Source: Pontiellaceae bacterium B1224
GTDB lineage: Bacteria > Verrucomicrobiota > Kiritimatiellia > Kiritimatiellales > Pontiellaceae
Direction of reading: 5' to 3'
Assembly (NCBI GenBank): GCA_029432815.1
Contig: JAROBA010000009.1
Location: forward strand, 1-64,000
Length of the DNA: 64,000 nucleotides
Part shown: in pieces, positions 21,787 through 42,096 of the stretch
Position numbering within the stretch: position 1 is the stretch's first letter
How the letters are laid out: every line of letters begins with the position of its first letter
Translations under genes and position numbers: made by a program
Notes under the pieces: model-generated
The model's database searches: none
Told to the model about the DNA's origin: nothing
Seen by the model: the letters and a program-made list of their open reading frames with translations, nothing else

Positions 21787-22028
21787 TTTTGTCCTCGTTT
21801 CGTTTTTAGATAGAGGCACCCTTTGCCCCTTTAAATCGGTGTAAGTTTCGACCTTCAGCACATAGGACTGGAGTGACGCTCTTCCACTACGAACAGAAAG
21901 AATGTTTCATAATGAAGAAAGAGGCGGATCAACCGTACTGTTGATGCAATGCACATTTTTTCGTGATACCCCTAGTTTTGACCGATATAGATGAGACAAA
22001 ATGACCACTTTTCACTAAATTGAACGCA

Positions 22029-23996
22029 ATGATTCAGACGTATACAATTTCCAGATGGTACCTGATGGCGGCGGGAGCAATCGTGCTCGCACAACTACCT
22101 GCACAGGCCAAAGAGGCGATCCCCTCCCCGGCGGTTCTGGAAAGTAAACTGGAATCCATTGATACGGAATTGGGTCAATTAGCAACATTTACCATGCGTA
22201 CCGGCGTCGGCAATCTGGGATGGCTCTCTCAGGATCATCCTGACCCCAACCATTCCGAATGGATTGAGATAAAGCTCAACGAAGAAACAACCATCGACCA
22301 GATTGTGCTCGCCCCCATCATCTGGGTGGATGAAAACCGGGGTCCTGTCGCAGATGGATTCCCTGTGGAATTCCGTATTATCGTCGGTTCTTCGCAATAT
22401 CCGGAAGGTCAAGTAGTCGCCACCTACGCAGAAAAAGACGAACTATTGCCGCGCATTGCTCCACTGGTTATTCCACTCGAACCAACAAAAGCGGCATGGG
22501 TCCGTGTTGAGGCCACAAAACTTTCTCCCTGGGCGTGGAATAAAGGCCGATATATCTTTCAATTATCTGAAATCCTGATCTTCAACGGGGACCGAAATCT
22601 AGCTTTACGCCGCCCGGCCCGGACATCTACAAGCCGCAGAAATAAGGTGAATCCATCCATGTCTGCCAAGGCTTTGACGGATGGGCATATGCCGTACGTC
22701 ATGGATGCCGCTCCCGGCAAACGCAGCGATCCATATGTGGCCTTTTATAGAGACGACGCCATTCCCACCATCACCATCGATCTCGGAAAAGTACATGCCA
22801 TAAACGGGATCAACCTCCATACAGCAGACCTAAGGGAAAATATTCCACGCATTCACCACGCGGACTATGCAATTCCTAAACACCTTCTTATTGAAGCCTC
22901 CATGGCGACAAACTTCTACAACGCCAAACCGATCATGGAATACGTACGCCGGCAAATCTACGATACCGGTCCGATTACCATGCAAAATTTCCCGACTACG
23001 AATGCGCGCTATATTCGGCTGACGGTTAAGGAGGGATATCAAGCACCGGAAGCCACTGGTTCCTGGCGCTGTTTTGGTTTCGCTGAAATAGAGATCTGTT
23101 CGGACACCCGGAATATGGCCATAGGTCGGGAAGCCGTTCTGAATATTAAAGAAACGAATGTTACCGATGGACACATCTCCGCACTTACCGACGGCCTGAA
23201 TCATTATGGAACGATCCTCCCCATCAGAGAATGGCTGAACCAACTGGCCCGTCGGCATGAACTGGAAGTAATCCGTCCACGCATTGCCGAGCAACTTGCG
23301 GGCATCTATCTACATCAGGAAAAACTCGTAGCAACTCTCAAGCTCCTCACAGCCCTACTTGCGATCAGTATCGCATTGGCTATAAGCATTGAGTATCTGC
23401 TGCATCGGCGATCTATAAGGCGTCTGAAACAACAGTTTGCCGCCGATCTGCATGATGAGATTGGGGCCAACCTTCATACGATCGGCCTGCTCAGCGATAT
23501 GGTGGAGGAATTCAAAGAGGCCCCTACAACCATATCCGAATATGTAAAACGAATCAGGGCCGTTACCGAGCGGACCGGCACAGCCATTCGTTATGTCACC
23601 GGCATGCATGATTCGCCCGAACTGTTCGCCGATTTAAAAACCGACATGCAGCGGGCCGCCGACCGGATTGTGACCAAACAAAAACATACCTTGGTTATTG
23701 AAGGCGAAGACTTCATCCCCAACCTCAAGCAGCGAACCCGAATCAACCTGTTCCTCTTTTACAAGGAATGTCTGATCAACATCAGCCGTCACTCCGGGGC
23801 AACCGAACTCAAAACCGAACTGACCCTCACCCCGAAAGGGCTTGTTTTATCGATTACAGATAATGGAAAAGGCCTCACCCAGGACATCCCGAAATCCCTG
23901 CAGCGCCGGGCAAAATTGTTCAGAGCACACGTGTATCAGGAAACGCCTTCAACGGGTGGGACACGTATCATCTTAAGAGTTCGTCGTCCCAAATAA
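22029..23996 (+). CDS. Sensor histidine kinase with discoidin-like sensor domains
   Basis: A two-component sensor of about 655 residues. A TTG at 22020 is also in frame; I prefer the ATG at 22029, though neither has a clear SD. After a signal/first transmembrane segment (about 10-28) come two periplasmic galactose-binding (F5/8 type C-like) domains (about 45-190, SEWIEIKLNEETTIDQIVLAP; about 195-360, ALRRPARTSTS ... ITIDLGKVHAINGINLHTA). A second transmembrane helix (about 435-458) precedes a HisKA_3 dimerisation helix with phospho-acceptor LHDEIGANLHTIG (His about 475) and a HATPase domain (ECLINISRHSGATELK, SITDNGKGL). It should sense extracellular glycans and phosphorylate the regulator at 24013, 16 bases downstream. 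Confidence 0.9.
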   Translation: MIQTYTISRWYLMAAGAIVLAQLPAQAKEAIPSPAVLESKLESIDTELGQLATFTMRTGVGNLGWLSQDHPDPNHSEWIEIKLNEETTIDQIVLAPIIWVDENRGPVADGFPVEFRIIVGSSQYPEGQVVATYAEKDELLPRIAPLVIPLEPTKAAWVRVEATKLSPWAWNKGRYIFQLSEILIFNGDRNLALRRPARTSTSRRNKVNPSMSAKALTDGHMPYVMDAAPGKRSDPYVAFYRDDAIPTITIDLGKVHAINGINLHTADLRENIPRIHHADYAIPKHLLIEASMATNFYNAKPIMEYVRRQIYDTGPITMQNFPTTNARYIRLTVKEGYQAPEATGSWRCFGFAEIEICSDTRNMAIGREAVLNIKETNVTDGHISALTDGLNHYGTILPIREWLNQLARRHELEVIRPRIAEQLAGIYLHQEKLVATLKLLTALLAISIALAISIEYLLHRRSIRRLKQQFAADLHDEIGANLHTIGLLSDMVEEFKEAPTTISEYVKRIRAVTERTGTAIRYVTGMHDSPELFADLKTDMQRAADRIVTKQKHTLVIEGEDFIPNLKQRTRINLFLFYKECLINISRHSGATELKTELTLTPKGLVLSITDNGKGLTQDIPKSLQRRAKLFRAHVYQETPSTGGTRIILRVRRPK

Positions 23997-24012
23997 TTAA
24001 TTCCCGGAAATC

Positions 24013-24672
24013 ATGATGCAGAAAATCCAGATCATACTCATTGAAGATAATCCTGATTATCGTGAAACCCTGAGTCTCACGATCAACATGGAATCCGACA
24101 TGGAAATAGCCGACACCTTCGGTGCCTCGGAAATTGCACTTCGGAACCTGCAGACCGGTAATCGGCCGGATCTGATTCTGCTGGATCTCGGCCTGCCCGG
24201 CATGAGCGGGTTGGATGCCATTCCGTGGATCCAGCAATACTGCCCCGACACCAAAATTATAGCGCTTACCCAATCCAACAAAGAAGCGGATGTTCTGCGC
24301 GCCATTGCGCTCGGCACAAATGGATATCTGCTGAAATCTTCCACTGTAAAACAGATCAAAGATGGTATCCGCAGTGTGATGGAAGGCGGAACGCTGATGG
24401 ACCGCGAAGTTGCGGGCTATATCGTAAACGCGGTCAAAACCAAACCCGCAGCGATTAGACTCGAAGAACCCCTCACCTCCCGCGAACTGGAAATTCTCGT
24501 GCTCGTCAGTGAAGGGCTGCAGAAAAAAGATATCGGTGAAAAACTAGATATTTCATACGCCACCGTCGCCACCCATATCCGCCATATCTATGAAAAACTC
24601 CAGGTGGAAAACGCCCCCGCCGCCATCACCAAAGCATTCAAAGCCGGCATTCTGCCGCACAATAAACACTGA
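24013..24672 (+). CDS. NarL/LuxR-type response regulator
   Basis: A 219-residue response regulator, the partner of the upstream kinase. The receiver domain (1-125) has the acidic pocket E11-D12, the phospho-acceptor D58 (LILLDLGLPGMSGLD), T86 and K108 (GYLLKSS). The C-terminal LuxR-type helix-turn-helix (about 150-215) reads LTSRELEILVLVSEGLQKKD ... YATVATHIRHIYEKL. On phosphorylation it would bind DNA near its target genes; the targets are unknown. It overlaps no other gene and is followed by a nested stem-loop. Confidence 0.95.
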   Translation: MMQKIQIILIEDNPDYRETLSLTINMESDMEIADTFGASEIALRNLQTGNRPDLILLDLGLPGMSGLDAIPWIQQYCPDTKIIALTQSNKEADVLRAIALGTNGYLLKSSTVKQIKDGIRSVMEGGTLMDREVAGYIVNAVKTKPAAIRLEEPLTSRELEILVLVSEGLQKKDIGEKLDISYATVATHIRHIYEKLQVENAPAAITKAFKAGILPHNKH

Positions 24673-24813: not shown

Positions 24814-25248
24814 TTAAGCCGCCATACCGCGAATACACGTTTCCACCAAATCGATGACCTTTTCCTGCACCCGCTTCCGGGCCGGGTCGCGCTCCAGCAC
24901 CTTCAAATCGCGCTCGATTAATTCGACAATATCCGGGTCGGGAAGCGGCTTCTGACCGGTGTAAACATAACGGTTAATCACTTCCTGCAATTTGTCGGGA
25001 TTGAGCTGCTCCTCTTTGACAAGCTGATCAAAGGCCGACCGCCGTTCCTGCTCCCAGAAATCCTCGAACGAATCCGGGATCTCCGCCGCACTGGAAAGAT
25101 TCGGCAGGGTGCTGTCGATAAATTTTTGAATCAGCTCGCGCTTGCTCCGCAGTTCAATCTCGCCCGCCACCAAATGCGTCGGGGCAGCATGACCCAGCAT
25201 CGCCCCCAGACAGACCAACCCAAACAGACCCAACCGTTTTATATTCAT
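24814..25248 (-). CDS. Type I restriction HsdR C-terminal fragment with a signal peptide
   Basis: A 144-residue protein of two unlike parts. Residues 1-26 look like a secretion signal (NIKRLGLFGLVCLGAMLGHA). From about 30 the sequence matches the helical C-terminal end of type I restriction endonuclease R subunits: ELRSKRELIQKFIDSTLP, FEDFWEQERRSAFDQLVKEE, LNPDKLQEVINRYVYTGQKP, RVQEKVIDLVETCI. The nuclease and helicase parts are absent, so it cannot restrict DNA. I start at the ATG 25248 (GGCGG upstream) rather than the TTG at 25254. It follows the secreted glycosidase-like gene by 32 bases, as in an operon. Whether it is a relic or a reused helical domain is open. A damaged hsdM lies at 40822-41844. 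Confidence 0.75.
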   Translation of the reverse strand: MNIKRLGLFGLVCLGAMLGHAAPTHLVAGEIELRSKRELIQKFIDSTLPNLSSAAEIPDSFEDFWEQERRSAFDQLVKEEQLNPDKLQEVINRYVYTGQKPLPDPDIVELIERDLKVLERDPARKRVQEKVIDLVETCIRGMAA

Positions 25249-27290: not shown

Positions 27291-29054
27291 TTAATCTTCG
27301 ATAAAAGCGCGGTAGAATTCCACATCAGATGAAACGGAATTCGTCACCGTCACTTCAGTTCCCGTACCGGCAATATTGGTGATGATATTATCCCAACCCC
27401 CAACGGTCATAGACGTACGAACCTCCACACCATATGAGCCGTTATTGCTGGTCAAAAAGCTCAGAGTCACTTCGGTTCCCCCCGAAATAACACCAATGGA
27501 AATATCACCAACCGCCGGCGGTAGAGGTGGATTTGGAGTAATCCAGGACAGGTTATCCATCGTGCCGATACTGCCGATGCCACGCGTATCGATATAAAAA
27601 CCAACGGCGGAGGCATCATTCCCAGCCCCCATCCCCGAACGGGTGGTAAGCACGTTCCGAGTTTCGCCAACATAGGATCCTACTTGAAAATCGTTTTCAC
27701 CCGTACGGGCAATGAACAAAGCTGTAACCCCGGTAGCATCTCCGCTTGCATTACCAAGCTCGCTTGTCCCGTTGAATCCACGAGCTCTTATGAGCGTATC
27801 ACTGTTAAGATATACAGACACATAATCTTCGCGCACTTCGTTAACCGGAGTTTTACCGACATAGAGACCGACCGCCGAATTTAACGTACCTGACATCGTC
27901 TTGAACCAGGAAATATCACATTTGACTTCTTCACCAACGGCCAGGCTGAACCCGTTATAGATGAAAGCGTATTGATCTGCAGCACCCGAATGAGCGGTTG
28001 AGGCAAAATCAAGGGCCTCGCTGTTAATTACTCCAGCAAGGTCGTTTGCCCCTCCGCTATTGTTCAGGATTCTGGTCATGGTGTAATTCGACAGGTCGCC
28101 GCTGAAGTCATCCATCAGGACAGTTGTGGGCTCGACGATCGCATTGATGTCTCTGGTTGTGCTGTTGCTGTTGCTCAAGGTATCCACGACCGTCAGCTCT
28201 ACCATATATGTTCCAGCCGATACAAAGGTGTTGGTGACCACACCACCCGTGGCCGTATTCCCATCGCCGAAGTCCCAGTTATAGGAGGCGATCGGTTCTA
28301 TAGACACACTATTCGTTCCGCTGAAAACGACCTCCAGCGGTGCCGTCCCGGAAAGCGGAGAGGCATCGATATCGGCGGTTACCGGCTCCACCTCAACAAT
28401 CTGGAAGCTTTCAATCGCTCCAACGGTCCCGGCAGCGCGCACATCTGCATAGATACCGACTACATTTCCGGAATTCGCTGTGGTTGGAGTAAGAGAGCCT
28501 CTGACCGTACGAGTTTCGCCTACATAGTTACCCCACACATAGGTATTATCCGCCACCCGGGCAATAAACAACTTGGTTGTGCCAACCGCAGTATAATTAG
28601 GGTTACCATACTCGTCGCCTCCATCAAAACCACGTTGCCAAACATTGTTGCTATTACGCTTTCCATACACCGCGATGTAGTCCTGCCGAGTTCCCGCAAC
28701 CGGAGCAGTACCCCCCACATAAAGTCCAAACGCTTCATTGTTAGCAGCACCCGTGATCGGCCAATTCGCCACCGTCACCTGAGCCTCCTCACCAACGGCT
28801 AAGGTTGCGCCGCTTCTGATGTATGCCCACTGCTCGATGCCATCGTACGCCGATGTAGCCAGCTCTAGATCGCCGCCGCCATTTACCTGCCACGTGGATG
28901 TATTGGCACTTCCGCCATTATCATCCAAGATAGCCGTACCCGTCCAGTTCCCTAATCCTCCGCTGAAATCATCAGAAATGATTCCTGCCAGCGATGAGGT
29001 AACACAACCCAGCCCCACGATAACCGCAGTGACTCCTATTTGTATTCTTTTCAT
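27291..29054 (-). CDS. Secreted PKD-domain protein with duplicated binding module
   Basis: An exported 587-residue protein. A signal peptide (1-24) is followed by a module of about 200 residues (DDFSGGLGNWTGTAILDDNG ... NVVGIYADVRAAGTVGAIES), a PKD domain (about 225-305, PLEVVFSGT, SYNWDFGDGNTATGG), a second diverged copy of the first module (DDFSGDLSNYTMTRILNN ... VGFYIDTRGIGSIG), and the FYR-type C-terminal module (VEFYRAFIED). The first module is nearly identical to those of the two genes upstream. No enzyme motif; carbohydrate binding or surface display is inferred. GGGAG precedes the ATG. Confidence 0.87.
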   Translation of the reverse strand: MKRIQIGVTAVIVGLGCVTSSLAGIISDDFSGGLGNWTGTAILDDNGGSANTSTWQVNGGGDLELATSAYDGIEQWAYIRSGATLAVGEEAQVTVANWPITGAANNEAFGLYVGGTAPVAGTRQDYIAVYGKRNSNNVWQRGFDGGDEYGNPNYTAVGTTKLFIARVADNTYVWGNYVGETRTVRGSLTPTTANSGNVVGIYADVRAAGTVGAIESFQIVEVEPVTADIDASPLSGTAPLEVVFSGTNSVSIEPIASYNWDFGDGNTATGGVVTNTFVSAGTYMVELTVVDTLSNSNSTTRDINAIVEPTTVLMDDFSGDLSNYTMTRILNNSGGANDLAGVINSEALDFASTAHSGAADQYAFIYNGFSLAVGEEVKCDISWFKTMSGTLNSAVGLYVGKTPVNEVREDYVSVYLNSDTLIRARGFNGTSELGNASGDATGVTALFIARTGENDFQVGSYVGETRNVLTTRSGMGAGNDASAVGFYIDTRGIGSIGTMDNLSWITPNPPLPPAVGDISIGVISGGTEVTLSFLTSNNGSYGVEVRTSMTVGGWDNIITNIAGTGTEVTVTNSVSSDVEFYRAFIED

Positions 29055-29132
29055 CTTATTGCTCCCTTTGTTAGGTTAATTGATTGATGTGGTTTAATAT
29101 TTCAAAGGGGTACACTCAAATCCTTTTCGAGC

Positions 29133-29177
29133 AGGTGTCCCCGTAAAACTTTTACTACTACGGAGGTGGTGACACCT
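29133..29177. repeat. Compound stem-loop downstream of the decayed-anchor gene
   Basis: AGGTGTC (29133-29139) pairs with GACACCT (29171-29177), and CCGTA with TACGG inside. It lies after the minus-strand gene ending at 29261, about 80 bases beyond its stop, and could end its transcript; no U-run follows on the minus strand. Confidence 0.35.
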
Positions 29178-29208
29178 ATCTCAACACTCCGTTATTTTTT
29201 GAATAATG

Positions 29209-29260
29209 CTACTTAAACTGGACCCCGAAAAGACGGCGGACAAAACAGCATCTCACCCTG
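29209..29260 (-). pseudogene. Remnant of a PEP-CTERM anchor
   Basis: Past the TGA stop at 29261-29263 the minus strand still reads a diverged anchor: QGEMLF in the original frame, then, one frame over, VRRLFGVQFK and a stop at 29209-29211. The expected order PEPAT, hydrophobic stretch, RR-tail is thus present but broken by one stop and one single-base shift. Confidence 0.55.
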
Positions 29261-29959
29261 TCACTCGGTGATTAATCCCATGGTCGCCGGCTCAGTAGAA
29301 ATAATTTGGAAGCTTTCAATCGCTCCAATCGTCCCTGCGGCTCGGACATCTGCATAGATGCCCACCACGTTGCCGGAATTCGCTGTGCTCGGAACACAGG
29401 TGCCTGCGACTCTACGAGTCTCACCATCATAGCTACCCCACTCATAGGTATTTACCCCTGTCCGGGCAATAAACAGTTTGGTTACACCTAATGGATTATA
29501 ATTTGGGTAATTACGAAACTCACCTGTTCCATCAAATCCACGTTGGAAAACCCTCGGATTATTATGTTTCCCATACACTGTAATGTAGTTGTTTCGGCTT
29601 CCAGGAACTGGTTCAGCACCTCCCACAAAAAGTCCAAAAGATTCGTGGCCGGCAGCTCCAGTGATCGTCCAATTCGCCACCGTCAGCTGAACTTCGTCAC
29701 CGACAGCCAGAGATGCTCCCTTCCTGATGTAAGCCCACTGCTCGATCCCATCGTATTCCGATGTAGCCAACTCCAGATTACCACTGCCATTTACCTGCCA
29801 GACGGATCTATTGGCACTCCCGCCATTATCATCCAGAATGGCCGTACCGCTCCAGTTTCCCAACCCACCACTGAAACCCTCATAGATAGCCATCGAGGAT
29901 TGAGATATAACCATCCCCACGGCAACGGCGACGATCCTTAGTCTTTTTCTTTTCATCAT
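29261..29959 (-). CDS. Tandem secreted paralogue lacking a working anchor
   Basis: A 232-residue exported protein, middle copy of a three-gene tandem set. The signal peptide (1-27, VAVGMVISQSSMA) leads into the shared module (YEGFSGGLGNWSGTAILDDN ... EWGSYDGETRRVAG ... GNVVGIYADVRAAGTIGAIES). It ends at STEPATMGLITE, where the neighbour at 30030 continues from PEPAT into a hydrophobic helix and an Arg tail. The frame stops early at 29261, so the protein should be released rather than anchored. The SD is weak (GAGCAG). Function unknown. Confidence 0.82.
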   Translation of the reverse strand: MMKRKRLRIVAVAVGMVISQSSMAIYEGFSGGLGNWSGTAILDDNGGSANRSVWQVNGSGNLELATSEYDGIEQWAYIRKGASLAVGDEVQLTVANWTITGAAGHESFGLFVGGAEPVPGSRNNYITVYGKHNNPRVFQRGFDGTGEFRNYPNYNPLGVTKLFIARTGVNTYEWGSYDGETRRVAGTCVPSTANSGNVVGIYADVRAAGTIGAIESFQIISTEPATMGLITE

Positions 29960-29974
29960 ATTTTACTGCTCAAC

Positions 29975-30000
29975 GGGCGATGGAGACGATTCCATCGCCC
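29975..30000 (-). terminator. Perfect 10-base hairpin
   Basis: GGGCGATGGA (29975-29984) pairs with TCCATCGCCC (29991-30000) around six bases, between two tandem minus-strand genes. It fits a terminator for the gene ending at 30030, though no U-run follows. Confidence 0.5.
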
Positions 30001-30029
30001 CGAACATTCATTTAACAATGCGGATTACA

Positions 30030-30767
30030 CTAGATCATAAAACGACGACGAATGAAGAACATCCCACCACCGAAAACCGCGATAAGTCCTGCGGTAGCCG
30101 GCTCAGGAATGATCTGAAAGCTTTCAATCGCTCCAACCGTTCCAGCCCCGCGCACATCTGCATAGATACCGACTACATTTCCGGAATTCGCTGTATCTGG
30201 AGTACGAGTGCCTCCGACCGTACGAGTCTCGCCAACATAGTTACCCCACTCATAGGTATTATCCGCCGTCCGGGCAATAAACAGCTTGGTTGTACCAGCC
30301 GCACCATAATTAGGGTTATTATACTCAGTGGTTCCGTCAAAACCACGTTGGAAAACATTGTTGTTATTACGTTTCCCATACACCGTGATGAAGTCCTGCC
30401 GTGTTCCTGCAACCGGAGCAGTACCCCCCACATAAAGACCGAACGATTCATTGTTAGCAGCACCCGTGATCGCCCAGTTCGCCACCGTCACCTGAGCCTC
30501 CTCACCAACGGCTAAGGTTGCGCCGTTTCTGATGTATGCCCACTGCTCGATACCATCGTACGCCGACGTAGCCAGCTCCAGATCGCCACCGCCATTTACC
30601 TGCCACGTGGATGTATTGGCACTTCCGCCATTAGCATCCAAGATAGCCGTACCCGTCCAGTTCCCTAATCCTCCGCTGAAATCATCAGAAATGATTCCCG
30701 CCAACGATGCAGAAACACAACCCAGCCCCACGATAACCGCAGTGACTCCTATTTGTATTCTTTTCAT
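30030..30767 (-). CDS. PEP-CTERM tandem secreted paralogue
   Basis: A 245-residue exported protein. I start at 30767 because GGAGAAC precedes that ATG and the signal peptide (IQIGVTAVIVGLGCVSASLA) is the same as in the gene at 27291; the frame runs on to 30827. One copy of the shared module follows (DDFSGGLGNWTGTAILDANG ... GTTEYNNPNYGAAGTTKLFI). It ends in an intact anchor: PEPATAG, LIAVFGGGMFFI, RRRFMI. This is likely the ancestral architecture of the three-gene set. Function unknown. Confidence 0.88.
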   Translation of the reverse strand: MKRIQIGVTAVIVGLGCVSASLAGIISDDFSGGLGNWTGTAILDANGGSANTSTWQVNGGGDLELATSAYDGIEQWAYIRNGATLAVGEEAQVTVANWAITGAANNESFGLYVGGTAPVAGTRQDFITVYGKRNNNNVFQRGFDGTTEYNNPNYGAAGTTKLFIARTADNTYEWGNYVGETRTVGGTRTPDTANSGNVVGIYADVRGAGTVGAIESFQIIPEPATAGLIAVFGGGMFFIRRRFMI

Positions 30768-30829
30768 CTTGTTCTCCTTTTCAAACCGGATGACCCGTTC
30801 ATCCGAAAGATCACTCAAAAACTTCATGA

Positions 30830-33649
30830 TCAGTCGCCAATAATCCTATAAAAACCCATCTTATCTACCGGGCAGTTACTAACAGACATATCGCCATTTT
30901 CACCGGCAATCTCATTCATAATATTGCTCCAGGCCCCCGCCACCAAATTACTCCGAAACTGCAGGGTATAGTCCGCAGTATTGGTTCCCTCCCACCCAAG
31001 CACCGAGCAGGAGTTCGAAAATGATATAGAAGGAGAAGAAACCGCTTTCGACTGGATAAACACATGCTCCCCGGAGCCGATTTCATCAAAGACAACAAAT
31101 GCACCAATCGGAACGCCCTGCTGATCAACACCATCAACATTGACCGTATTACCGGAAATCACATGCTTCGGAATATGCACGGCGGCCGTTGTGTTCGCCG
31201 GAATCTCAATAACATATCGATTAGAGGCCTCATGTTGCTCAACCGATACGGAAACCGGACCGCGCACCGTCGGCATGGTCAGCGAGGCAAATTCCAGGTC
31301 ACCGATCTGCGGTTTGATTTGGATTTTCTCGAAACCGGGCTCCAGCGGTGTGACCCCCATCAACTGACGAGGGATAATGTTCGCCGGGGCTGCACCCCAC
31401 GCGTGGTTCCAGTCCAGGTTGCTTTTATAGGCCTGACCCCATGCTTCGAGTGTAACCATGGACCCCTCTTCCATCATATTCCACCAGCTGCGCGGACCGG
31501 TAGAGCGCATCAGCTCCAGCGCGGCTTGGTCGCGCCCCGCATTATAGAGTCCATCCAGCAGATATTGCGCACCGTAGACGCTCGGCGCCATGCCACGCGA
31601 TTCCACAAAGTCAGCAACAGCCTGCATATTTGTTTCCGGTACAAGATCAAACGCCAACGGGAAAAAATTGGCATGCGCGGCGGAGTGCGTCGACCCTACA
31701 CCATCGACATAGATGCCGGAGCCAGCATCAAACAAAAGGCTTTGGAACAGCGGTGTATGCGCGGCAATTTCATTTTCCCAGAACGTGACCTCAGAAGGCA
31801 TATCCAATGCGGAAGCAATATCTCGCATCATGTTCAGACCACGATTATAGAAGGCGTTAACTACCGTATTATAATTCTGGAAATCATAACCGTCTCGTTC
31901 ACTCGTGGGCCAATCCACAATATCCCGAAACGTCGTACCTCCGTCGTAATGGATCGATTCCTTAAAGGCGGCATCCACTAGACCGGTCTTGGTGGAGATC
32001 AGCCCGTTGGATTCCTTGAGCGCAATCAGCGACTTTGCTTTCAGATCGTCATAATATTCCGCCAATGAGTCGGTATTGCCGGTATACATCCAGTCGTAAT
32101 AAGCCATCAGCACCGAATGCGAAATCCACTCCGTGGGCCACGTGGCATTTTCAATCAGGAATTCATGGCTGTAACGCGCCGTAGTGAATTCACGGGTGGT
32201 GGAATAATGCCCCAATTGCTGGATAAAGGCATCCGCTTCGTAGGGCAGCGTTTCACGAATGCCATCCACATAAATGCCCAGCCAGGTCAGCACTTTTATA
32301 CTGTACCTGGAGAGCTCCCATACTTCGTTCAACACAGCATCGCTGGAAACAAACGAAGAATCATCCTCATTAAACGGCACCCAGTAGGCAATCTGCTTTA
32401 CATTAGTCGGAGCAACACCCAACCCGATAATTTCGGCATAGCGAAACGGCAGTGTATTTTCCGTATAGTCATAAATATTCCGCTGTCCAGTTTCATACGG
32501 CTCCAGATCCACATGAACCGTCTGGTTTCCTTCCGGCAGATCCATGGTGTGCGAGTGATAAACAATGCTTGCCCCCGGATCCGTTTCCACCGCATTACCA
32601 TCTCGCTTCTCGCCAAACCGGATTTCCACATCGGTCAGTCCGCCGGAGGGAACATCCACATCAAACTCCAGCGTTCCAAAGGCGGCTTTGCCCATATCGA
32701 TAAAATAATTTCCGTTGATCTCAACCACACTTTCAGCTGAAACGGTATGAGCGGATGGCAGGTAACGGTTAGGGGAGGGAGACGCTGAGGACGGAATAAG
32801 ATTTTCCCCATCCACAGTCAGCGCCGAGACTGTAAACGATTCACTCCCGCCCGTTCGGAAGCCGATGCTTCCCTGCGTATGCACGCTGTCGCTTCGCGTA
32901 TCGATCAATGTTCCGTCAATATAGGTCTTGAACTCGGATCCGGAGACCTCAATCACCACTTCATATTCCTCGCCGACATTAAAGTCATAGGCAACCTCAC
33001 CCAACACGGCCCAGGAGCCCCCGGTCCGAATATGCGGCCGAAGAGCATTGGCTGAAGCACTCAGCTGCCACATATACAGATTGCTATCGTTCGACATCCG
33101 GAAGTTGATTCCGGCTGCAACCGTATCGATCGTCAACGAAGCTTCAATACGGATATCCGTCCAACCGAAGCCCTCCGGATAGTCAATCAGGCTGTTTTTC
33201 GAAACAACAATTTCCCCATCTTCATTCACCGGAATCCAGACAGAAGTAGAATTCAGATCGACAATAAAGTTTTGTGCCGAAGAATACGGACTGGCCTCGT
33301 CATCTTTATCCCAGGTGCGCACGCACCACCAGTAACTGCCGGACTCCAGTTCCGAGCCACCGAACTCCACATTCACCGACGCATTGGTCAGCAACTTTCC
33401 GGAATTCCAAACATCCGCAGCTCCTTCCGTCAACAGGGCCTCATCGGTCGCCACCAGAATCTGACAGGACGTCTGCACCTCGTCCTTATCCCGATCATTT
33501 ACAATCCAGGTAAACTCCGGAAAAGAATCCGTAATTGTCGTCTGCTCCGGATATTCCAGCAGCTCCGTCATCAAACCGGTCGGCGCATCGGCCGCCCATG
33601 ATCCAGCGGCGCAACAAACAACCGAAATCCCAATCAACATCCTCTTCAT
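30830..33649 (-). CDS. Secreted alpha-L-rhamnosidase (GH78)
   Basis: A 939-residue exported enzyme releasing L-rhamnose from glycans. A signal peptide (1-19), an N-terminal beta-sandwich typical of GH78 (FPEFTWIVNDRDKDEVQTSC ... ELESGSYWWCVRTWDKD), a LamG-like insert (about 140-270), then the (alpha/alpha)6 barrel with ETLPYEADAFIQQLGHYS, WPTEWISHSVLMAYYDWMYT and TLEAWGQAYKSNLDWNHAWG, a C-terminal sandwich (TPLEPGFEKIQIKPQIGDL), and the FYR-type module (GFYRIIGD). The ATG has AAGGAA upstream. It lies beside the rhamnose-use operon and shares a 41-base upstream block with rhaA. Confidence 0.95.
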   Translation of the reverse strand: MKRMLIGISVVCCAAGSWAADAPTGLMTELLEYPEQTTITDSFPEFTWIVNDRDKDEVQTSCQILVATDEALLTEGAADVWNSGKLLTNASVNVEFGGSELESGSYWWCVRTWDKDDEASPYSSAQNFIVDLNSTSVWIPVNEDGEIVVSKNSLIDYPEGFGWTDIRIEASLTIDTVAAGINFRMSNDSNLYMWQLSASANALRPHIRTGGSWAVLGEVAYDFNVGEEYEVVIEVSGSEFKTYIDGTLIDTRSDSVHTQGSIGFRTGGSESFTVSALTVDGENLIPSSASPSPNRYLPSAHTVSAESVVEINGNYFIDMGKAAFGTLEFDVDVPSGGLTDVEIRFGEKRDGNAVETDPGASIVYHSHTMDLPEGNQTVHVDLEPYETGQRNIYDYTENTLPFRYAEIIGLGVAPTNVKQIAYWVPFNEDDSSFVSSDAVLNEVWELSRYSIKVLTWLGIYVDGIRETLPYEADAFIQQLGHYSTTREFTTARYSHEFLIENATWPTEWISHSVLMAYYDWMYTGNTDSLAEYYDDLKAKSLIALKESNGLISTKTGLVDAAFKESIHYDGGTTFRDIVDWPTSERDGYDFQNYNTVVNAFYNRGLNMMRDIASALDMPSEVTFWENEIAAHTPLFQSLLFDAGSGIYVDGVGSTHSAAHANFFPLAFDLVPETNMQAVADFVESRGMAPSVYGAQYLLDGLYNAGRDQAALELMRSTGPRSWWNMMEEGSMVTLEAWGQAYKSNLDWNHAWGAAPANIIPRQLMGVTPLEPGFEKIQIKPQIGDLEFASLTMPTVRGPVSVSVEQHEASNRYVIEIPANTTAAVHIPKHVISGNTVNVDGVDQQGVPIGAFVVFDEIGSGEHVFIQSKAVSSPSISFSNSCSVLGWEGTNTADYTLQFRSNLVAGAWSNIMNEIAGENGDMSVSNCPVDKMGFYRIIGD

Positions 33650-37912: not shown

Positions 37913-39172
37913 CTATGCACGTTTCGACAAAACACGTTCTTCATAGGCGTCCACTTCGGCCAGCCAGTCTGCACCGACGGGAACGTCCGCCTTTTCGCAG
38001 AGCCGATCCCAAACCGCCGCAAACGGCATCGACTTAAACTCTTCCATCAGCGCCAGGCGCTGGCCGTTTCGGCCTTCGGCCTCATAGCTCTGCAGCTGTT
38101 CCGTCGGATCGAGCAGCGCATAGAGCATCCCCTTCCGCACCGCGCGGGTACCGGTCACATAAGCACTGATGCGGTTGATGGAGGCATCAAAAAAGTCGAG
38201 CGCCAGGATGACCCGGTCCCAGACATTGCCGCGCTGGATTTCAAGAAACACATTTTTCAGGTCATCATTAAAGAGCACCACATGGTCGGAGTCCCAACGG
38301 ATCGGGCGGCTCACGTGCAGAAGAAGCCGGTCCATAAACTGCAGGTGGCTGGAAATTTTGCCGTGAATGGTTTCGGTTGGATGGAAGTGCCCCATATCCA
38401 TACAGAGCCCCGTGCCGCGGCTGATCGCATAATTGGAACAGAACTCCGCTGAGCTCACCACATACTCCTCCGAGCCAATGCCGAAGAGCTTGCTCTCGAT
38501 AAAATCAACACACCGGGATTTATCGACCGAATCGTCCGCCATAATTTCGTCGTAAGACATTGCCATGCGCTCGCGCGGCCCGAAGCGGTCGGCGGGAATA
38601 TCCTTCGAGCCGTCGGGCGTCCACCAGTTCACATAGCAGGGAGAGCCCTGGTTTTCCGCCATCGCCTCGGCAACCCTTCGGCAGGATTGTCCGTGCCGAA
38701 CCCAGAAGGCGCGTATTTCATCATCACGATGGGAAAGCGTGTAACCGTCATCGGCCTTCGGATGGGCAAAAAACGTCGGATTAAAGTCGAGGCAGATCCC
38801 ATGCTCCTTTGCCCACTCCATCCATTTCCGGAAAGCAACCGGCGAAATTTTATCGCGATCAACAGGTTCATCCGTTTCAGCATAGAGCGCATGAACGTTG
38901 CAGCGCTGAACACCGGGAATCAGCGACATCGCCTTCGTGATGTCCGCCCGCACTTCCTCGCCGTTTCGCGCACGGCCGGGATAGCTGCCCGTCGCCATAA
39001 TACCGCCGCCATCGAGTCCTTCGGACTTCGTTTCAAATCCGACCACATCATCAGCCTGCCAGCAGTGCAGCGAGATTGGAATCCTTAGCGCTTTTTCAAT
39101 GGCGGCATCAGTATCAATTCCAAAAGCCGTATATCGTTTCTTCGCCAGTTCATAGGCCTTATCGATATTCAT
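37913..39172 (-). CDS. rhaA: L-rhamnose isomerase
   Basis: Interconverts L-rhamnose and L-rhamnulose, the first step of rhamnose use in the cytoplasm. At 419 residues it has the length usual for RhaA, and the sequence matches along its whole length (IPISLHCWQADDVVGFE, NVHALYAETDEPVDRDKI, GICLDFNPTFFAHPKAD, WWTPDGSKDIPADRFGPRER, GLCMDMGHFHPTETI, HVSRPIRWDSDHVVLFND). The Asp/His/Glu metal ligands lie in the last three blocks. First gene of the operon rhaA, transporter, small protein, double aldolase, aldolase, rhaB stump. Its promoter and operator lie just upstream, divergent from an AraC-type gene. Confidence 0.97.
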   Translation of the reverse strand: MNIDKAYELAKKRYTAFGIDTDAAIEKALRIPISLHCWQADDVVGFETKSEGLDGGGIMATGSYPGRARNGEEVRADITKAMSLIPGVQRCNVHALYAETDEPVDRDKISPVAFRKWMEWAKEHGICLDFNPTFFAHPKADDGYTLSHRDDEIRAFWVRHGQSCRRVAEAMAENQGSPCYVNWWTPDGSKDIPADRFGPRERMAMSYDEIMADDSVDKSRCVDFIESKLFGIGSEEYVVSSAEFCSNYAISRGTGLCMDMGHFHPTETIHGKISSHLQFMDRLLLHVSRPIRWDSDHVVLFNDDLKNVFLEIQRGNVWDRVILALDFFDASINRISAYVTGTRAVRKGMLYALLDPTEQLQSYEAEGRNGQRLALMEEFKSMPFAAVWDRLCEKADVPVGADWLAEVDAYEERVLSKRA

Positions 39173-40277: not shown

Positions 40278-40685
40278 TTATTTCAAACCCCAATGCCAAT
40301 CCGCATTGTATTTCTTTGATACCGGCTTGATGGAGAAGTCGCCGTTGTAGTCGGCAGAGGAGACAACCACATTTCCACCCTTTGGAAGTTTGATCTCTAC
40401 AATACCATTGCCCAGAAAATCGACATCCAGCAGCGCACCGTCTTCAAACAGCACATCGCCGCCCGTGGCATCGTCTTCAGGATCGTCGACAAGAATCGGA
40501 GTGACGCCCTGTGCAGTACGGTCGATTTTTACCCATAGCATCGAACCCGCGTTCTGCGTCCATGATCCATCAATAGAAGCATAGGAGCCGATCCCAATCT
40601 GAGCAGCGTCCGAACCCTCGACTTCGAAAACACCGATTCCGCCGGCATCCGATGGCTTATTGCTATTTTCGAGGTTACTCTTCAT
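40278..40685 (-). pseudogene. Truncated beta-strand-repeat protein
   Basis: A 135-residue frame with GGGAG before its ATG but no signal peptide. From about residue 15 it aligns with the middle of the secreted proteins at 72 and 2425: GVFEVEGSDAAQIGIGS against GTFRVEGTGASSIQIGG, then WTQNAGSMLWVKID, GVTPILVDD, and DVLFEDGALLDVDFLG. It lacks both the N-terminal repeats and a PEP-CTERM or FYR end. Without export it is probably a gene fragment. It borders the repeat-rich scar to the right. Confidence 0.7.
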
Positions 40686-40694
40686 TTATACTCC

Positions 40695-40800
40695 CCGCCT
40701 TGCGTTCTTTGCGCTCTCTCGTGGCTAAAACATTCATGTTCATATGCGGTTAAAATTAATCCCATTCGTTTCCGTGTCTTCTGTGTATTCCGTGGTCAAC
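40695..40800. repeat. Two dispersed low-complexity repeat units
   Basis: Two stretches with the wording of dispersed repeats common in environmental bacterial genomes: about 40695-40730 (CTTGCGTTCTTTGCGCTCTC) and about 40767-40800 (TTTCCGTGTCTTCTGTGTAT then TCCGTGGTCAA). On the minus strand the second reads TTEYTEDTE, a peptide pattern often seen when such repeats are translated by mistake. They border the hsdM fragment. Confidence 0.5.
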
Positions 40801-40821
40801 AATTCTCCCCTAAAACGGCGC

Positions 40822-41844
40822 CTAAATTCCGAGTTCCTGACAAAAGCCGGCGATAACGTCGTCCGTCTCGCCCATCGCTTTTTCGAGCACCGCCAGCTTT
40901 TCGGAGACTTCGGCCAGGTCGACGGGTTCCTCTTCTTCGAAGGTATCGACGTAGCGCGGAATGTTGAGGTTGTAGTCGTTTTCTGCAACCTCGCTCAGAT
41001 CGGCGACGTGGCTGAATTTTTCGAGGGGCTCGCGTTTCCGATAGGTCTCGACGATGCGTTCGATGTCTTCGGGGCGCAGCTGGTTTTGGTTGCCTACTTT
41101 TTCAAAGCCCTGGCTGGCCACGCGCAGCAGCAGCGAGCCGAAACCGCAGGAGGGATCGTAGACGTTTTTGAGGCTGGTCTTTCCGGTGGTGACGATTTTG
41201 GCGAGGATGGTGCTGACTTGCTGCGGGGTGTAAAACTCGCCCGCCTTTTTGCCCGCGCCACTGGCAAACTGGCCGATCAGATATTCATAGGCATCGCCCA
41301 GCACGTCGGCCTCGGTGTCGTCGAGCCGGAAGTCGATGGCATCGAGATGCACCAGCACCTTGGCAATCAGCTCGTTTTTCTGGTTCTCGGTTTTCCCAAG
41401 CTTGGAAGAGCCGAGGTCAAGGTCTTCAAACAGCCCTTCAAAATCTTCCTCGCTGTCGTGCCCCATCGTGCTGCTCTCAATGTGCTTCAGAATCGCCGTG
41501 AGGTCTTCGAGGATAAAGTTGTCCGATTTCCGTGCGCTCTTTTCCGCCAGCTTGTGGAACAGCTCGGCCGGTTTCAGGAAATAGCCCGGCCACCCCACCG
41601 ACTCCTCTTCAATGGCCGCGAGCATTTCCTGCCCGTCGACCGTGGTTTCATCAATCGCATCGAATTTAATCCCGTCGTGCTTCAGAATCTCATCGGCAAA
41701 CTGGTGCATGCGTTCGGAGAGGTATTTATAGAAAATGAAGCCCAGGATATAGTCGCGGAATTCATCCGCGCCCATTTTACCGCGCAGCGTATTGGCAATA
41801 TCCCACAGGCGGGACTGCAGGTTCTTTTTGTTTTCTTCAGACAT
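40822..41844 (-). pseudogene. hsdM: Type I methyltransferase subunit with internal deletion
   Basis: A 340-residue frame from 41844. The N-terminal HsdM domain is present (LQSRLWDIANTLRGKM, FRDYILGFIFYKYLSERM, YEYLIGQFASGAGKKAGEFY), as is SAM motif I, here DPSCGFGSLLL. About 14 residues later it jumps to the C-terminal end (QLRPEDIERIVETYRK, EKFSHVADLSEVAENDYNLN). The central catalytic region, with the NPPY motif, is missing; about 180 residues by comparison with full-length HsdM. The frame is otherwise open. It cannot methylate. No hsdS or hsdR follows; the HsdR tail at 24814 is 16 kb away. Flanked by repeats on both sides. Confidence 0.82.
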
Positions 41845-41944: not shown

Positions 41945-41993
41945 TTTTCCAAACAATGGAAAATTTCTACTTCTTTTTCCAAGCCTTGGAAAA
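41945..41993. repeat. Two TTCCA-N5-TGGAA palindromes in tandem
   Basis: TTTTCCA-N5-TGGAAAA (41945-41963) and TTTTCCAA-GCC-TTGGAAAA (41975-41993). They are two of thirteen perfect TTCCA-N5-TGGAA sites in the window; the others start at 10616, 40373, 43431, 44626, 44823, 46537, 48392, 51056, 51247, 55647 and 59998. These two and the one at 51247 are outside genes. Confidence 0.75.
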
Positions 41994-42096
41994 TCAATCA
42001 GCGCGTTTTTCCAGACAAAGTAGGAAAGGCTTGGAAGGCGAAAATGGATGGAGTCTTCCCTTGCCATTGCGTCCTCGCAGGAGCAATTTTCCAACT

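What the first reader, a model, noticed from the sequence alone, without database searches (positions are those of the whole stretch)
24814..25248. HsdR tail joined to a signal peptide
A short gene joins an export signal to the helical C-terminal domain of a type I restriction R subunit. In a working R subunit that domain serves complex assembly in the cytoplasm. Here it is open, has an SD-like start and sits in an operon with a secreted enzyme, so it may be reused or a fresh fusion.
Basis: partly seen in the sequence, partly recalled or inferred. Interest (0 to 1): 0.6.

Follow-up and report, generated by a model that had tools for sequence, protein, structure and literature searches.

The report
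Scar of a decayed restriction operon
The short gene is real, but it is most likely a rearrangement scar: the first 26 codons of a secreted sugar-cutting enzyme gene joined to the last 118 codons of a broken DNA-restriction gene, whose sister gene also lies broken 16 kb away; it is ordinary gene decay, probably with no function.

Summary
The ORF is real, on the minus strand: ATG at 25248, stop at 24816-24814, 144 aa. Residues 27-144 are the last 118 residues of a type I restriction R subunit (Pfam EcoR124_C, E=2.9e-19), 84% identical to Verrucomicrobiales HsdR. No homologue found shares the signal peptide; matches to close relatives begin at about residue 27, within full-length HsdRs wherever the contig allows.

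The signal peptide can be traced. "AAPTHLV" is the start of the GH78 alpha-L-rhamnosidases of this genus (APT[HQ]LVDE; 6 of 6 genus-wide motif hits are rhamnosidase starts). In a paralogous cluster of the same genome such a gene directly follows the paralogue of the ORF's upstream neighbour. The junction lies at GTGG, which both parents share.

The same operon's hsdM also lies in the window (40813-41844, same strand, upstream as expected). It is broken: a 180-codon deletion removed NPPF, motif I is altered, and a TAG lies near the end. hsdS and the rest of hsdR were not found.

So this is a decayed horizontally acquired hsdMSR operon whose hsdR 3' end became fused in frame to a rhamnosidase gene start. 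Selection tests are inconclusive. Re-use as an exported protein is not excluded but has no support.

The parts
24814..25248 (-). Fused open reading frame, 144 aa (P0001)
25171..25248 (-). Codons 1-26: signal peptide plus start of the mature part of a GH78 alpha-L-rhamnosidase gene (MNIKRLGLFGLVCLGAMLGHAAPTHL)
   Evidence: AAPTHLV equals the start of genus rhamnosidases (AAPT[HQ]LVDE)
25167..25170 (-). Junction: GTGG, shared by the two parental sequences (4-bp microhomology)
   Evidence: Rhamnosidase CTGGTGGATGAA / TTTGGTGGACGAA and hsdR GCCGTGGCGGG / TCCGTGGCGGG against window TTGGTGGCGGG
24817..25170 (-). Codons 27-144: 3' end of a type IC-like hsdR (EcoR124_C), last five helices
25281..26972 (-). 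Upstream gene, 563 aa, exported, very weak GH67-like match; its paralogue on contig C66 is followed directly by an intact rhamnosidase
40813..41844 (-). hsdM pseudogene of the same operon: HsdM residues 1-242 joined to 423-522
41114..41118 (-). hsdM deletion junction (180 codons lost), at GCCAG, a short repeat inferred from relatives
40822..40824 (-). Nonsense codon TAG in the hsdM remnant, where relatives have K (ELGI*APF against ELGIKAPF)
37913..39172 (-). rhaA, L-rhamnose isomerase; with the GH78 and aldolase genes it forms the rhamnose cluster between the two hsd remnants
30830..33649 (-). Intact GH78 rhamnosidase of the same cluster (a different subfamily, about 40% identical)
24013..24672 (+). 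Convergent LuxR-type response regulator with its histidine kinase (22020-23996), host-lineage genes flanking the scar

Best explanation
It is a rearrangement scar. A horizontally acquired type IC-like hsdM-hsdS-hsdR operon decayed in this genome, and deletion or replacement events at short repeats removed hsdS, the first ~88% of hsdR and the middle of hsdM. One event joined the first 26-27 codons of a secreted GH78 alpha-L-rhamnosidase gene, the gene expected directly after the 563-aa gene, to codon ~885 of hsdR. By chance (about 1 in 3) it was in frame, at a shared GTGG. Shown: both parental sequences, the junction, the missing operon parts and the hsdM pseudogene in the same strand and order. 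Inferred: the ORF is transcribed from the rhamnosidase's position and translated from its start; the product would be sent to Sec and, lacking two helices and all partners, degraded or inert. The order of events (deletion, or replacement by the 15.6-kb rhamnose block) is not resolved.
For: Tail = HsdR 3' end; the closest relatives whose contigs hold the gene are full-length HsdRs, and matches to the close relatives start at about residue 27. Rhamnosidase origin of the start: own paralogue on C66 'FAAPTQLVDETPV' directly after the 563-aa paralogue; G008 'NAAPTHLVDESPV'; G006 and G004 (two) similar; the motif occurs 6 times in 28 genomes, every time at a rhamnosidase start; in G006 the gene follows rhaA. 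No N-terminally truncated rhamnosidase of this kind elsewhere in the genome. hsdM remnant on the same strand upstream, with internal deletion, motif I change DPTCGSG to DPSCGFG, and TAG. No hsdS or other hsdR piece on the contig, and no other EcoR124_C in the genome.
Against: The tail has no stop or frameshift, and the branch leading to it fits omega 0.042, not different from background 0.033; omega = 1 fits worse (2dlnL about 4.2). That branch includes all the time before the fusion and silent sites are saturated, so this says little. Both deletions kept the reading frame, which by chance is about 1 in 9. The GTGG microhomology is short, and the parental sequences at the actual event are inferred from relatives.
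Confidence: 0.88

Rival explanations
1. Co-option: the fusion makes a small exported helical protein that is used, for example in the periplasm as a binding or regulatory domain of the rhamnose-degradation cluster.
For: Open frame, signal peptide with a plausible cleavage site, position in a putative operon; no stop in 118 codons; of 51 positions invariant in relatives only one is broken here.
Against: No homologue of this architecture in any collection searched. A short frame can stay open by chance: about 0.5 at 0.05 neutral substitutions per site. The operon's hsdM is a pseudogene. The first two helices of the domain are lost. All nine residues private to this copy lie in residues 89-142, including F134L, F138C and P114D, and derived amino-acid changes are 13 against 3 in the sister while silent changes are 18 against 20, although functional pairs show similar asymmetry.
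Confidence: 0.07
2. Assembly chimera: the draft assembly joined unrelated sequences at 25170.
For: The genome is a 204-contig assembly, and the junction is a short repeat.
Against: The tail is flanked on both sides by host-lineage genes (563-aa paralogue family; histidine kinase 42% identical to that of G008), so two false joins would be needed. A second, matching remnant (hsdM) with internal deletion and nonsense codon lies on the same contig.
Confidence: 0.03
3. The product stays in the cytoplasm (internal start, or failed export) and acts as a mini-HsdR that competes for a methyltransferase, damping restriction.
For: The C-terminal helical domain of EcoR124I HsdR has been implicated in assembly with the methyltransferase (PMC5248579).
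Against: The genome holds no other EcoR124-type HsdR and the cognate HsdM is broken, so there is no partner to damp.
Confidence: 0.02

Closest known systems
HsdR of EcoR124I-like (type IC) restriction-modification systems, Pfam PF12008 EcoR124_C; structures 5j3n, 6h2j, 2w00
   Same: The last 118 residues align without gaps with the C-terminus of close HsdR relatives; the fold model matches 5j3n and 6h2j best
   Different: Nuclease, two helicase domains and the first part of the helical region are all absent; a signal peptide precedes the tail
GH78 alpha-L-rhamnosidases of the same genus (PF17389/PF17390/PF05592)
   Same: Signal peptide ending and first mature residues (A|APTHLV), and position after the 563-aa gene family
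   Different: The whole catalytic body is missing
Decayed type I R-M loci (hsd pseudogenes)
   Same: Internal deletion and nonsense codon in hsdM, hsdS and most of hsdR lost; another genome of the phylum holds a similarly deleted hsdR of the same subfamily (L086)
   Different: Here the surviving hsdR end is in frame with an export signal

Membership tests
Type I restriction R subunit (HsdR) | N-terminal HSDR_N nuclease domain | tested here: not met
   Absent from the ORF; present in relative L013
Type I restriction R subunit (HsdR) | SF2 helicase/translocase domains (ResIII, SWI2_SNF2) | tested here: not met
   Absent; present in L013
Type I restriction R subunit (HsdR) | EcoR124_C helical domain | tested here: met
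   Partial: profile positions 146-259 of 260, E=2.9e-19
Type I restriction R subunit (HsdR) | Intact hsdM and hsdS partners in an operon | tested here: not met
   hsdM broken, hsdS not found on the contig
GH78 alpha-L-rhamnosidase | Six-hairpin catalytic domain PF17389 | tested here: not met
   Only the first 26-27 codons remain
GH78 alpha-L-rhamnosidase | Genus-typical start A|APT[HQ]LV | tested here: met
Exported protein (Sec signal peptide) | n-, h- and c-regions with small residue at -1 | tested here: met
   Sequence and hydropathy only; no dedicated predictor on hand
Pseudogene or gene remnant | Truncation or fusion relative to functional relatives | tested here: met
Pseudogene or gene remnant | Relaxed selection (dN/dS near 1) | tested here: inconclusive

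The most novel reading that the evidence does not exclude
The in-frame fusion has been kept and makes a new exported helical protein from a restriction-enzyme tail, a case of a new secreted gene born by joining a signal peptide to a piece of a defence gene.
Probability: 0.06. Interest if true: 0.55.

Novelty: new member of a known kind. Interest (0 to 1): 0.2.

Why it matters
As found, it mainly prevents a false annotation: an automatic pipeline would report a secreted "type I restriction enzyme R" protein. It also documents how a horizontally acquired type I operon decays by deletions at short repeats that can leave in-frame chimeric genes. If the product were in fact made and used, it would be a clean example of the birth of a secreted gene.

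Tried and rejected
Plus-strand reading of the coordinates: has a stop. Homologues with the same signal peptide: none in genus, phylum sample, species genomes, viral contigs or plasmids. A second intact type IC hsdR in the genome as donor: none. An insertion that split the rhamnosidase: no rhamnosidase body downstream of the tail or elsewhere without its start. Homology of the tail's 3' flank to sequence downstream of hsdR in relatives: it ends within a few bases of the stop. Codon-model branch test: silent sites saturated, inconclusive (an earlier script failed because too many threads were requested). Private-residue and relative-rate counts: suggestive but not beyond what functional relatives show. 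Papers on in-frame signal-peptide/hsdR fusions: none recognised in the lists. The original paper on the 5j3n domain is not held.

Full report
Observation. The gene is on the minus strand, ATG at 25248 and stop at 24816-24814, 144 codons. Residues 27-137 match Pfam EcoR124_C (positions 146-259 of 260, E=2.9e-19), and PADLOC's REase_I profile at its end (852-967 of 976). The first 26 residues look like a Sec signal peptide: two positive charges, a hydrophobic core, then GHA|APTHLV. It begins 32 bp after the stop of a 563-aa exported protein on the same strand.

Where the tail comes from. A scan of 84,980 species genomes gave 51 relatives. The closest, 84% to about 62% identical in Verrucomicrobiales, Akkermansiaceae, Opitutales and gammaproteobacterial MAGs, nearly all align from residue 27 to 144, and where the contig allows the surrounding frame is in most cases a full-length HsdR of about 970-1017 codons. 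A representative has HSDR_N, helicase domains, T1R_D3-like and EcoR124_C. None has the signal peptide. The phylum sample of 388 genomes, 58 nearest relatives, plasmids and viral contigs agree. In models, the break falls in the loop between helix 74-88 and helix 92-107 of the HsdR C-terminal 205 residues; the tail keeps the last five helices. The closest solved structures are 5j3n and 6h2j, the C-terminal domain of EcoR124I HsdR. [quoted passage not shown]

Where the signal peptide comes from. The upstream 563-aa gene has a 69% identical paralogue in the same genome on contig C66. Directly after that paralogue, overlapping its stop, starts a GH78 alpha-L-rhamnosidase: MTNQINPILRYLLCISWLTGIAFAAPTQLVDETPV.... 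Rhamnosidases of other genomes of the genus begin the same way: NAAPTHLVDESPV (G008), AGAPTHLVDEKPV (G006), LAAPTHLVDERPV and HGAPTHLVDEPAV (G004). A degenerate DNA pattern for APT[HQ]LVDE occurs six times in 28 genomes, each time at the start of a rhamnosidase-like gene already found by protein search, and never in the reversed control. In G006 that gene follows rhaA. The window's GHAAPTHLV is therefore most likely the start of such a gene. At the DNA level the rhamnosidases read ...CATTTGGTGGACGAA (G004) or CAGCTGGTGGATGAA (C66), and hsdR relatives read ...GTGGCGGGCGAA or similar; the window reads CATTTGGTGGCGGGCGAG, so the two parents share GTGG at the junction. The rhamnosidase body is gone: no N-terminally truncated copy was found in the genome.

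The other end of the operon. A search with a relative's HsdM gave a 77% identical, interrupted match in this same window, minus strand, 40813-41133. Against a complete operon from a related genome (L104: hsdM, hsdS, hsdR) the window holds HsdM residues 1-242 and 423-522 joined in frame. The lost 180 codons include the NPPF catalytic motif. Motif I reads DPSCGFG instead of DPTCGSG, and a TAG replaces the lysine codon of ELGIKAPF. The deletion junction again sits at a short repeat, GCCAG, inferred from relatives. No hsdS and no other hsdR fragment lies anywhere on the 131-kb contig, and the genome has no other EcoR124-type hsdR. The M remnant lies upstream of the R tail on the same strand, the normal operon order, with a 15.6-kb block holding rhaA, aldolases, a GH78 rhamnosidase, tandem secreted proteins and the 563-aa gene between them.

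Interpretation. The simplest account is a horizontally acquired type IC-like hsdMSR operon that decayed by deletion or replacement between short repeats, one event joining the rhamnosidase start to the hsdR end in frame. Whether the rhamnose block was inserted into the operon, or a deletion plus a separate rearrangement occurred, cannot be decided. A chimera of the assembly is unlikely because the tail lies between host-lineage genes and a second matching remnant is present.

Selection. With 14 sequences and 118 codons, a codon model gave omega 0.033 overall and 0.042 on the window branch (2dlnL 0.09); omega fixed at 1 is worse by 2dlnL of about 4.2. Silent sites are saturated and the branch includes the time when the sequence was part of a working HsdR. 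Against the sister L011 the window has 13 derived amino-acid changes against 3, with 18 against 20 silent ones. All nine private residues lie in residues 89-142, including F134L, F138C and P114D. Other functional pairs show similar asymmetries, so this is at most a hint of relaxation. The lack of a stop is not informative for so short a frame.

Verdict. A real, in-frame chimeric ORF, best read as a non-functional scar. Co-option is not excluded but nothing supports it. Interest is low: the parts and the process are ordinary; the value is in the clear provenance.

Noticed in passing
window 40813-41844 (minus): hsdM pseudogene, 82% identical to an intact HsdM of the same phylum over residues 1-242, with 180-codon in-frame deletion, altered motif I and premature TAG; still a 340-codon open frame
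   Followed up: yes
L086 (G277:C3 near 47.2 kb): Another decayed hsdR of the same subfamily: first ~30 codons, then a deletion of several hundred codons, then a second internal deletion before DPDIV
   Followed up: partly
window 41945-42013, with copies near contig C204 67419-67459 and 93914-93936: Short interspersed repeat just upstream of the hsdM remnant, also found elsewhere on the contig
   Followed up: no
window 40744-40812: Sequence right after hsdM translates to TTEYTEDTET (opposite strand VSVSSVYSVV), looking like a simple intergenic repeat
   Followed up: no
window 27291-30827 (minus): Three tandem paralogous exported proteins sharing a 'SGGLGNWTGTAILDDNGGSAN'-like stretch, one with a duplicated domain and a PKD domain, one with a PEP-CTERM-like end
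   Followed up: no
window 22020-24672 (plus): Histidine kinase with an F5/8 type C (carbohydrate-binding-like) sensor plus LuxR-type response regulator beside the rhamnose cluster; a 42% identical kinase lies near the corresponding cluster in G008
   Followed up: partly
window 40278-40685 (minus): 135-aa ORF resembling the end of a secreted protein, without Pfam match, between hsdM remnant and the AraC-type regulator; possibly another remnant
   Followed up: no
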